Positions 29,679-32,027 of a DNA stretch of 64,000 nt are shown here, one piece after another (the stretch's first letter is position 1; each line of letters begins with the position of its first letter). This DNA comes from Comamonadaceae bacterium 2FH (GTDB lineage Bacteria; Pseudomonadota; Gammaproteobacteria; Burkholderiales; Burkholderiaceae_C). Made by a program: the position numbers and the translations under genes. The stretch spans positions 124,001-188,000 of the forward strand of contig SCMQ01000005.1 of assembly GCA_005503335.1 (NCBI GenBank), given 5' to 3'. The notes beneath the pieces were generated by a model. It did no database searches. It worked only from the letters and a program-made list of their open reading frames with translations, and had not been told where the DNA came from.

Positions 29679-30368
29679 TCAGGCCGGCTCCATGCCGTTG
29701 CGGCGCTTGGGTTCGTCGGCGGCGGGCGAGGCCATGAAGGCCAGCATGGCGCGCACCGCCTCGGGCTGGGTCGAGGTCGCGGCCAGGCCGGCCGAGAAGG
29801 CGGTGATGATCTGGATCTCGGGCGGCAGCGGGCCCAGCACGGCTATGCCCTCCAGGTGCATCAGCTCGCTCAGCTGCTGGAAGCCCAGCGCCACCTCGCC
29901 CTTGGCCACCAGCGAGCCCACGGGCACGCCGGGCGGCGCCTGCACGATGCGGTCCCTGATCTGCTCGGCGATGCCCCAGCGCTCGAACAGCTTGGCCAGC
30001 GCCACCCCGCTGGGCCCGGTGGAGTAGCTGAGGCTGGGCGCGGCCAGTACGGCCTGCCTGACCGCCTCCTCGGAGGCTATGTCGGGCCGCGGCGCGCCGG
30101 CGCGCACCGCGATCGCCACGCCCGAGCGCACCAGGTCGACCCGGCTGCCGGCCACCACCCGGCCCGCCTCGGTCAGCTGCTCGATCGCGTTGGACGCCAG
30201 GATCACCGCGTCGAAGGCCTCGCCGGCCTGCACGCGCTTGGCGGCGTCGACCCCGCCGACCGACTCCACGGATACCAGCTGTCCCGAGCCCTGCTGATAC
30301 TGGGCCACGAGGTCGGCCAGCACCTGCTTGGTTGCCATCGAGGAAATGATTCGGATTGGGGATGCCAT
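29679..30368 (-). CDS. ModA-like substrate-binding domain protein without signal peptide
   Basis: From the ATG at 30368 the product is 229 residues: SPIRIISSMATKQVLADLV, GGVDAAKRVQAGEAFDAVILA, SLSYSTGPSGVALAKLFERWG, GEVALGFQQLSELMHLEGI. This is the type II periplasmic-binding fold of molybdate-binding ModA. It starts directly at the first strand, so no export signal exists, and no ABC permease or ATPase is nearby. Longer upstream frames add only sequence from the divergent promoter. Probably a cytosolic ligand-binding protein; ligand unknown. Confidence 0.8.
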   Translation of the reverse strand: MASPIRIISSMATKQVLADLVAQYQQGSGQLVSVESVGGVDAAKRVQAGEAFDAVILASNAIEQLTEAGRVVAGSRVDLVRSGVAIAVRAGAPRPDIASEEAVRQAVLAAPSLSYSTGPSGVALAKLFERWGIAEQIRDRIVQAPPGVPVGSLVAKGEVALGFQQLSELMHLEGIAVLGPLPPEIQIITAFSAGLAATSTQPEAVRAMLAFMASPAADEPKRRNGMEPA

Positions 30369-30489
30369 GGGGCCCTCCGTCGTGTGGTTTGGAACATGCG
30401 CCCGGCCGTGGGGCGGGAAACCGGTATTAGAACGCAGCGGTTTTCCCTGCATGGCACGCGAGCGAGCCGTATCGCTGGAAATACGACTC

Positions 30490-31083
30490 ATGAAGGCCCA
30501 TGCCCGTCCCGTCTACCTCTGGCAACAGCCCGGCTGGCCGCTCCTGCAGGTCGACGCGGCGGCCCTGTCGGGCGTCCTGCAGCAAGCGCGCAAACGTCAG
30601 GGCGAGGCGCTGGCGCTGGCGCAGGACCTGGGGACGCCCACCCGCCTGTACAGCCTGTCCGACCAGCTGTTGGCCTCGCGCAGCGACTATTACGAGGCCT
30701 TGAACCAGGCGCAAAAGGGCACGCCCGATGTCACGGCCTGGGTCCGCTGGTTTGCCGACGCGCTGGCCCAGGCCGGCGTGCGCACCACGCGGATCATGCT
30801 GTCGGCGCTGCAAAAGCAGCGCTTCTGGGCGGCCCATGCTGCAACGCCGCTCAACGAACGGCAACGCAAGGTCGTCAAGAAGCTGCTGGACGCGGGCGAC
30901 GGCGGTTTTCTGGGTGGACTGAGCGCCGAGAAATACGTCAAGATCACCGGCGCTTCCAAGGCCACGGCCACGCGGGACCTGGCGGCGCTGCTGCAGCATG
31001 GCTTGTTGCGCGTGCAGGGCAGTGGCAAGGCCAGCCGGTATCAGGTCAATGTGCAGGAATGGGGGCACGCGGGGGCGGATTGA
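30490..31083 (+). CDS. Fic-family protein lacking the Fic catalytic core (internal deletion)
   Basis: The 197-residue protein begins with a DUF4172-like N-terminus (PVYLWQQPGWPLLQVDAAAL, ARKRQGEALALAQDLG). It then jumps at about residue 50 to what is normally the C-terminal third of DUF4172-Fic proteins: RLYSLSDQLLASRSDYYEALNQAQKG, WVRWFADALAQA, FWAAHAATPLNERQRKVVKKLLDAG and a winged helix (GASKATATRDLAALLQHGLL). The inhibitory (S/T)xxxE(G/N) motif and the catalytic HPFxDGNGR are both absent, a loss of roughly 170 residues kept in frame. It is divergent from the ModA-like gene. It may survive as a DNA-binding regulator or be a decaying gene. Confidence 0.7.
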   Translation: MKAHARPVYLWQQPGWPLLQVDAAALSGVLQQARKRQGEALALAQDLGTPTRLYSLSDQLLASRSDYYEALNQAQKGTPDVTAWVRWFADALAQAGVRTTRIMLSALQKQRFWAAHAATPLNERQRKVVKKLLDAGDGGFLGGLSAEKYVKITGASKATATRDLAALLQHGLLRVQGSGKASRYQVNVQEWGHAGAD

Positions 31084-31187
31084 GGCGCATAGGCTCACTC
31101 CCATCCGGGCGCAGAGCGCCGCCTTTGCAAGGCGTTTACAGTCGGTCAAGGAACCAATCCCCTTGCTTGCGGCTCCTGTTATCCATC

Positions 31188-32027
31188 ATGAAACTCGGCA
31201 AGTCCATCACCATCACCCTGCTGGCCGTATTCGGCCTGGGCCTGGGTCTCAGCCTGGCCCAGGCCCCGGTGACCAACGGCAGCGCCGAAGCGCGCAGCTG
31301 GCAGACCGCACCCAAGCATTCCGCAGGCATCGCGCCCGACCCGGCGCAGCTGGCCGGCGTCGCCCTGGTCCAGGTCTACGCGGCGCCGACCTACGGCTGG
31401 CGCGGCGTCTTTGCCGTCCATCCCTGGATCATCTACAAGCGCGCCGGCGAGACCGCGTACACCCGCTACGACGTGGTCGGCTGGCGCGCCCCCGACGTGG
31501 TCCAGCGCAACTACGCCATCCCCGACGGACTCTGGTTCGGCGCCAGTCCCAGCCTGCTGGTGGAGCACCGCGGCGAGGGTGTCGAGGCCATGATTGCCGC
31601 CATCGAGGCGGCCATAGACAGCTACCCCCATGCGAGCGAGTACCGCAGCTACCCGGGGCCGAACAGCAACACCTTCCTGGCCCACATCGGGCGCGAGGTG
31701 CCCGCGCTGAAGCTGGACCTGCCGGCCAATGCCATAGGCAAGGACTACCGCCCGCTGACCTCGCCCCTGGGCATTTCGCCCACGGGCGCCGGCATACAGG
31801 CCTCGCTGCTGGGGCTCTTCGGCATCAGCCTGGGGCTGCAGGAGGGGGTCGAGTTCAACCTGCTCGGCCTGAACTTCGGCCTGGACCTGAACCGCCCGGC
31901 CTTGCGCCTGCCGTTCCTGGGGCGGCTGGGCTGGGACGATGCCAGGGCCACGGGCAGCATGGCCGAAGCCGGGCCGCCACGCCCGAGCCCAGGGCCGGCC
32001 ATGGCCGTCGCGCAGGAAGAGCGCTGA
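31188..32027 (+). CDS. DUF3750-like exported protein
   Basis: The 279-residue protein has a signal peptide (KLGKSITITLLAVFGLGLGLSLAQA). The body carries VALVQVYAAPTYGWRGVFAVHPWIIYK, YDVVGWRAPDVVQRNYAIPDGLWFG and PGPNSNTFLAHIGREVP, which I recognise as the DUF3750 pattern. A hydrophobic stretch at about 205-225 and a Pro-rich tail follow. Function unknown; the NSNTF motif might be a catalytic or binding element. The start at 31188 is fixed by the signal peptide. Monocistronic as far as can be seen. Confidence 0.75.
   Translation: MKLGKSITITLLAVFGLGLGLSLAQAPVTNGSAEARSWQTAPKHSAGIAPDPAQLAGVALVQVYAAPTYGWRGVFAVHPWIIYKRAGETAYTRYDVVGWRAPDVVQRNYAIPDGLWFGASPSLLVEHRGEGVEAMIAAIEAAIDSYPHASEYRSYPGPNSNTFLAHIGREVPALKLDLPANAIGKDYRPLTSPLGISPTGAGIQASLLGLFGISLGLQEGVEFNLLGLNFGLDLNRPALRLPFLGRLGWDDARATGSMAEAGPPRPSPGPAMAVAQEER

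What the first reader, a model, noticed from the sequence alone, without database searches (positions are those of the whole stretch)
30490..31083. Fic protein with its AMP-transferase core cleanly removed
The DUF4172-like N-terminus is joined in frame at about residue 50 to the C-terminal winged-helix part of a Fic protein, omitting the inhibitory motif and HPFxDGNGR. The frame and helix-turn-helix remain intact, so the product could act as a regulator or dominant partner instead of a toxin.
Basis: partly seen in the sequence, partly recalled or inferred. Interest (0 to 1): 0.5.

Follow-up and report, generated by a model that had tools for sequence, protein, structure and literature searches.

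The report
Fic enzyme gene that lost its core
One bacterium carries a shortened version of a protein-modifying enzyme in which the catalytic middle has been deleted but the pairing helix, the DNA-binding end and the matching DNA site are still there; it looks like a private deletion product rather than a conserved regulator.

Summary
The ORF at 30490-31083 (197 aa) is an in-frame internal deletion of a DUF4172-Fic-wHTH protein. The junction is at about residues 39-41, not about 50. Some 185-190 residues are gone, including the inhibitory helix and HPFxDGNGR. Kept are most of the helix that forms the dimer in the solved relative CbFic2, and the winged helix.

Full-length homologues have such palindromes there, and the half-site follows the recognition-helix type in 80 of 89 genes (words chosen after seeing the sequences). 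The window's helix fits its own site. The family is therefore probably autoregulatory, as shown experimentally for CccR, and the short protein could still bind its own promoter.

Against a functional short form: this junction was seen in no other genome of family, order and class sets of 399, 399 and 369 (own included). Five other internal deletions lie at other points, each broken or trimmed. The window's promoter-like box is weak (second lowest of 21). Coding decay is not seen (0 of 44 conserved positions changed), so the deletion may be recent.

Verdict: a private deletion derivative with retained DNA-binding parts; modest interest. The helix-to-operator correspondence is the more useful result.

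The parts
30464..30489 (+). Palindromic operator-like site GAGCCGTAT-n8-ATACGACTC directly before the ATG; right half-site carries one change from the family form CGGCTC
   Evidence: the same palindrome type stands upstream of most full-length homologues with the same recognition helix (18 of 23)
30477..30482 (+). Position of the -10-like box (common form TAnAAT, 7 nt before ATG, suggesting a leaderless mRNA); here GGAAAT
   Evidence: A at -12 in 15 of 15 and 20 of 20 anchored homologues, G in the window; box plus right half-site lowest of 17, second lowest of 21
30490..31083 (+). ORF of 197 aa: core-deleted DUF4172-Fic-wHTH protein
30514..30609 (+). Residues 9-40: kept N-terminal part of DUF4172, corresponding to about CbFic2 6-37 and most of its dimer helix alpha-1
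   Evidence: dimer helix from PMC10628234 (passages)
30604..30612 (+). Deletion junction, about residues 39-41
   Evidence: MAFFT placed residues 23-25 to 40 otherwise
30610..30843 (+). Residues 41-118: end of the Fic region and long connecting helix
30856..31053 (+). Residues 123-188: winged helix-turn-helix; recognition helix with SKATATRDL (helix 157-169 in the model, 30958-30996)
   Evidence: no change at 44 conserved columns of residues 41-197

Best explanation
It is a private, perhaps recent, in-frame internal deletion of an autoregulated class II Fic protein of the DUF4172-Fic-wHTH kind. Shown: about 185-190 residues holding the inhibitory helix and the whole catalytic motif are gone; most of the alpha-1 helix, the winged helix and a matching operator remain. 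Inferred: the product, if made, cannot AMPylate, can probably still fold and bind its own operator as a dimer, and would at most repress its own promoter. Inferred: because its promoter-like box and one half-site have changed and no second copy of the site was found in the genome, it is mainly a leftover of losing the enzyme, not a regulator of other genes.
For: Core missing, ends present. This junction in no other genome of the family (399), order (399) and class (369) sets, own genome included in each and the sets overlapping; the search does show such shapes, since single alignments across a junction came up for G136 and G756. Of 34 regions with odd-length copies examined, 5 show other internal excisions (G136, G090, G132:C27, G756, G1113), each with stops, a frameshift or a lost end, so these genes are repeatedly lost this way. 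Box plus right half-site: 8.5 bits, lowest of 17; 8.0 bits, second lowest of 21 when five more genes are added. A/T in the six bases before the palindrome 1 of 6, others 3-6. No sigma-70-like promoter by consensus scan of 30300-31200. Only one operator copy with 2 or fewer mismatches at this spacing in the genome.
Against: The C-terminal part shows no decay: 0 of 44 conserved columns changed, level with the three best of 34 homologues (those 34 were picked by likeness to the window). The recognition helix still fits the operator. L031, a full-length gene, has an even lower box score (7.4) and as many deviations (2 of 10), and L041 has 3 of 10, so a weak box does not prove a dead gene. No same-genus genome was available, so the age of the deletion is unknown.
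Confidence: 0.6

Rival explanations
1. A working enzyme-free autorepressor or dominant partner: the short protein dimerises through alpha-1, holds its operator through the winged helix, and may pair with a full-length DUF4172-Fic protein.
For: Both ends and the operator are kept and still match; coding part undecayed. In CccR, delivered H192A protein still represses, residues 201-380 alone still bind the promoter, and the dimer mutant loses repression (PMC9755527, passages).
Against: No second case with this junction. Only its own site was found in the genome at this spacing. The one full-length DUF4172-Fic gene in this genome is of the other helix type with GCGGnGA sites (L002) and 39% identical over the C-terminal part, so sharing an operator is unlikely. 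CccR dimerisation also uses K175, which by its numbering, just before His192 of the Fic motif, is probably in the part deleted here (inferred). Weak promoter-like box.
Confidence: 0.22
2. A dead fragment: the junction destroys folding and nothing stable is made.
For: Half of DUF4172 and the whole Fic domain are missing; the model from the sequence alone is poor (pLDDT 49).
Against: With three relatives in the alignment the model reaches pLDDT 69.5 and residues 121-170 of the winged helix average 71-89 per block of ten (wing region 59-67); the best structural match is CbFic2 (8cil, E 3.3e-9). The helix across the junction (23-47) is in both models (23-44), but the alignment used misplaces residues 25-40, so it is weak evidence there.
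Confidence: 0.13
3. An assembly error that collapsed a full-length gene.
For: Draft genome in 84 contigs; short similar words at both deletion ends of homologues.
Against: The site lies at about 154 kb of a contig that reaches at least 188 kb, not at an end; the similar words are only a few bases long, too short for usual mis-joins (inference).
Confidence: 0.05

Closest known systems
CbFic2 (CBU_0822, PDB 8CIL), PMC10628234
   Same: DUF4172 start, linker and winged helix align; most of the alpha-1 dimer helix kept
   Different: CbFic2 has the Fic motif (205-216) and inhibitory helix (62-67); both absent here. The authors used random DNA sequences in their binding assays (passage)
CccR of Yersinia pseudotuberculosis, PMC9755527
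   Same: Class II Fic with C-terminal HTH that represses its own gene through inverted repeats; the authors call the regulatory and toxic activities independent (passages)
   Different: CccR is an active enzyme and secreted effector; its site is 10-bp repeats separated by 26 bp, here 9-bp half-sites with 8 bases between. CccR itself was not aligned here
SoFic (NF046030; 3eqx, 3zec)
   Same: Fic protein with N-terminal helix and C-terminal winged helix; weak profile and structure matches
   Different: 12.2 bits against a cut-off of 550; enzyme with a Fic core
Full-length homologues in the same taxonomic family (for example L008, L028)
   Same: 64-65% identity from residue 41 to 191-193, same operator type at the same place
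   Different: Open frames of 409 and 393 aa with intact Fic core

Membership tests
Fic AMP-transferase (PF02661) | HPFx[DE]GNGR catalytic motif | tested here: not met
   Absent from the 197 aa; no Fic match in Pfam at E up to 1
Class II Fic | N-terminal inhibitory [ST]xxxE[GN] helix | tested here: not met
   TAAIEGE and the like of the homologues have no counterpart in the window protein
DUF4172 (PF13776) | Profile match over cut-off | tested here: met
   28.4 bits, cut-off 25, but only positions 1-46 of 82
Autorepressor of the CccR kind | DNA-binding helix-turn-helix | tested here: met
   Homology to CbFic2 and model of residues 123-188; Pfam and NCBIfam HTH matches stay below their cut-offs
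Autorepressor of the CccR kind | Inverted-repeat site at its own promoter, of the kind that goes with its helix type | tested here: met
   30464-30489, one changed base in one half-site
Autorepressor of the CccR kind | Binding to the operator and repression | not testable with these tools
   Needs EMSA or reporter
Autorepressor of the CccR kind | Working promoter | tested here: inconclusive
   Box GGAAAT instead of TAnAAT; lowest of 17, second lowest of 21; no consensus promoter
Conserved short DUF4172-wHTH family | Same short form in several species | tested here: not met
   None beside the own genome in sets of 399, 399 and 369; no other genome of the genus held

The most novel reading that the evidence does not exclude
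DUF4172-Fic enzymes as a whole are autorepressors with start-codon-abutting operators whose half-site can be read from one recognition helix (TATRDL: GAGCCG; TASREL: GAGTCG; TAYREL: GAAGCG; TALRDI: GCGGnGA). The window protein is a natural separation-of-function product: an enzyme-free dimer that still silences that operator and could act as a trans repressor of incoming full-length Fic genes of the same operator type.
Probability: 0.18. Interest if true: 0.6.

Novelty: new variant of a known kind. Interest (0 to 1): 0.33.

Why it matters
The short gene alone is a small curiosity: a natural experiment in which the enzyme is removed and the DNA-binding ends kept. The wider pattern matters more. 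The CccR paper says that nearly nothing is known about the biology of class II Fic proteins (passage); a readable match between recognition helix and operator would make their autoregulation testable gene by gene.

Tried and rejected
Phage records gave no match and a viral-contig scan found none that encodes a relative. Plasmids gave 431 records, all under 60% identity; 30 were listed, some with alignments running past the junction (as far as residue 13), and the one I opened (Dinoroseobacter) is an annotated Fic gene of 1119 bases; I did not open the other 430. The genome-contig scan gave three relatives, all with full-length frames. Synteny: the flanking genes were sought in relatives; the tallies, own genome included, are 7 of 90 for the downstream gene (similar plasmid genes are annotated DUF3750) and 35 of 90 for the divergent substrate-binding gene; I did not compare gene order further. 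A first operator statistic used too strict a start motif (20 genes) and was replaced (89 genes). One search read no files and was repeated. The helix classes left 7 of 89 genes unclassified; I widened the patterns (2 left). The half-site words and helix classes were chosen after seeing the sequences, so the table is descriptive. The single-sequence model was too poor to use. An RNA hairpin instead of a DNA operator was considered and set aside because half-site letters change with the protein; not tested by a covariance model. Paper searches (listings of titles and abstract starts) showed me no family-wide operator-helix rule, and CccR as the only Fic protein shown to bind its own promoter; I read passages of CccR and of the CbFic2 paper, part 1 of its section 15 and its abstract and outline. 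Nothing else was read.

Limits: the large genome searches score at most 8 candidates per genome, so a short copy could be missed where there are many; the three sets overlap; only spacing 8 was tried for the operator in the own genome, with a pattern already fitted to the window. The 89 genes were found by similarity to the window protein or to DUF4172, are related, and are no random sample.

Full report
What is there. The ORF at 30490-31083 on the + strand codes for 197 aa. Pfam sees the first half of DUF4172 at residues 9-54 and no Fic domain. Homologues with frames mostly of about 370-430 aa align at both ends and not in the middle: 43 of 53 C-terminal alignments start at residue 41, and 21 of 23 N-terminal ones end between residues 34 and 80, the other two at 118 and 172. 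With the solved relative CbFic2 (8cil) residues 9-61 match 6-62 weakly and 41-187 match 223-370. So the junction is at about residues 39-41 and CbFic2-equivalent residues of about 38-222 are missing. MAFFT placed residues 23-25 to 40 beside the Fic motif instead; the likeness of ARKRQGEA to the N-terminal ARKWQGEV/ARRLQGEV speaks against that. By the paper's numbering the loss takes the inhibitory helix 62-67 and the Fic motif 205-216, and leaves most of the dimer helix alpha-1 (17-41 or 20-43 in two places of the text) and the winged helix (PMC10628234, passages).

Fold. Alone, the sequence gives a poor AlphaFold model (pLDDT 49, helix 23-44). With three relatives it reaches 69.5, with helices at 23-47 and 82-115 and a winged helix at 123-188, of which residues 121-170 average 71-89 per block of ten and the wing 59-67. 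The alignment used misplaces residues 25-40, so only the C-terminal half gains from it. The best solved match is 8cil (E 3.3e-9, 138 columns, TM 0.60 by query). The fusion looks foldable, at moderate confidence.

The operator. Directly before the ATG lies GAGCCGTAT-n8-ATACGACTC (30464-30489). Palindromes of this kind, by eye one to three in a row, stand at this place in the homologues. For 89 distinct full-length genes the best inverted repeat with 9-base arms in the 170 bases before the W..WP motif had 9 of 9 matches in 40, 8 of 9 in 45 and 7 of 9 in 4; in 890 dinucleotide shuffles 9 of 9 came up 10 times, 8 of 9 103 times. The half-site follows the recognition helix: type TATRDL has GAGCCG (18 of 23), TASR[ED]L GAGTCG (6 of 7), TA[YF]REL GAAGCG (4 of 5), TALRDI GCGGnGA (51 of 51), TARRDL GAGCGA (1 of 1): 80 of 89. 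Of the other 9, two T-type genes (L110, L056) have GAGTCG, five have no clear site (L108, L141, L041, L046, L098) and two (L043, L048, with GAGTCG) have no classed helix. In one search, with narrower helix patterns, 7 genes were unclassified and 13 of 18 T-type genes had two or more GAGCCG. Classes and words were chosen after looking. On a midpoint-rooted FastTree of the part up to just behind the Fic motif, helix type changes 8 times and half-site 12 times by parsimony, and the Y type with GAAGCG sits in two separate places (L009/L052 and L109/L114); supports were not examined. The genes are related, so the counts are not independent events. The window's helix SKATATRDL belongs with GAGCCG, which is what its operator has.

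Meaning. CccR, a class II Fic protein with a C-terminal HTH, represses its own gene by binding inverted repeats; delivered H192A protein still represses, residues 201-380 alone still bind, and a dimer mutant does not repress (PMC9755527, passages). By analogy the homologues here are probably autorepressors, and the short form keeps much of what repression needs, although the CccR dimer also uses K175, probably in the region lost here. This is inference; no binding was tested.

In T-type homologues that could be anchored, a TAnAAT-like box ends 7 bases before the ATG, which suggests a leaderless message and an operator lying across the promoter (15 genes, 20; three of 23 could not be anchored; inference).

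Is the short form functional? For: the part from residue 41 on has no change at 44 columns conserved in 85% or more of 34 homologues (homologues 0-11 changes). Against: the window's box is GGAAAT, losing an A present in 20 of 20; box plus right half-site scores 8.5 bits, lowest of 17, and 8.0, second lowest of 21, in the wider set, where the full-length gene L031 is lower (7.4); the six bases before the palindrome have 1 A/T of 6 against 3-6; no consensus promoter is found. In the own genome the site occurs once with 2 or fewer mismatches at this spacing; a second hit has 3 mismatches, and the reversed control pattern gives 5 and 2. The genome holds 6 Fic matches; its one full-length DUF4172-Fic gene, on contig 22, has the other helix type and sites (L002).

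Is it shared? No genome other than the window's own has a copy with this junction in the family set (399), order set (399) or class set (369), own genome included in each; DUF4172 itself is found in 109 of 399 family genomes. I examined 34 regions with odd-length copies (16, 9, 2). Five show internal excisions at other points: G136 (own junction, two stops, end lost, palindrome kept), G090 (a stretch with the inhibitory motif joined in frame to the winged helix, Fic core and DUF4172 start gone), G132:C27 (the joined end seen by eye only), G756 (inhibitory helix gone, Fic motif kept, end lost) and G1113 (frameshifted). G132:C4 has a winged helix close behind a GAAGCG palindrome, matching its TAYREL helix. 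The rest are cut by contig ends, split by frameshifts, lack one terminus, or are full length. Loss of the middle of these genes is thus recurrent, but each case seen is private, and the window's is the one that keeps both ends in frame.

Deletion ends. In some homologues both flanks of the deletion carry short similar words (CTGG and neighbours), which would fit a deletion between very short repeats; the ancestor is not available, so this is only a suggestion.

Verdict. The most likely account is a private in-frame deletion of an autoregulated Fic gene, leaving a foldable DNA-binding remnant behind a weakened promoter. The helix-to-operator correspondence is the more general result; in the paper searches made I saw a Fic operator for CccR only, not a family rule.

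Noticed in passing
Own genome, contig 22, about 185693-190636 (L002, L005, L006): Three Fic genes lie within about 5 kb of each other, one of them the genome's only full-length DUF4172-Fic gene.
   Followed up: no
Upstream of 89 full-length homologues (for example L028, L038, L045, L009, L012): Operator half-sites change together with the recognition-helix type of the encoded Fic protein (80 of 89); some genes carry two or three palindromes in a row.
   Followed up: partly
L093 (G090:C2), about 1194-1574: A short in-frame ORF joins a stretch with the Fic inhibitory motif directly to a winged helix, with the Fic core gone; a second, different core-less form.
   Followed up: partly
L102 (G132:C4), about 800-1100: A winged-helix-only ORF starts at a palindrome of GAAGCG type that matches its TAYREL helix, as if everything between operator and winged helix had been deleted.
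   Followed up: partly
window 31188-32027: The downstream gene (similar plasmid genes are annotated DUF3750) is found in only 7 of 90 genomes of the relatives set, own genome included, so this stretch is variable among relatives.
   Followed up: no
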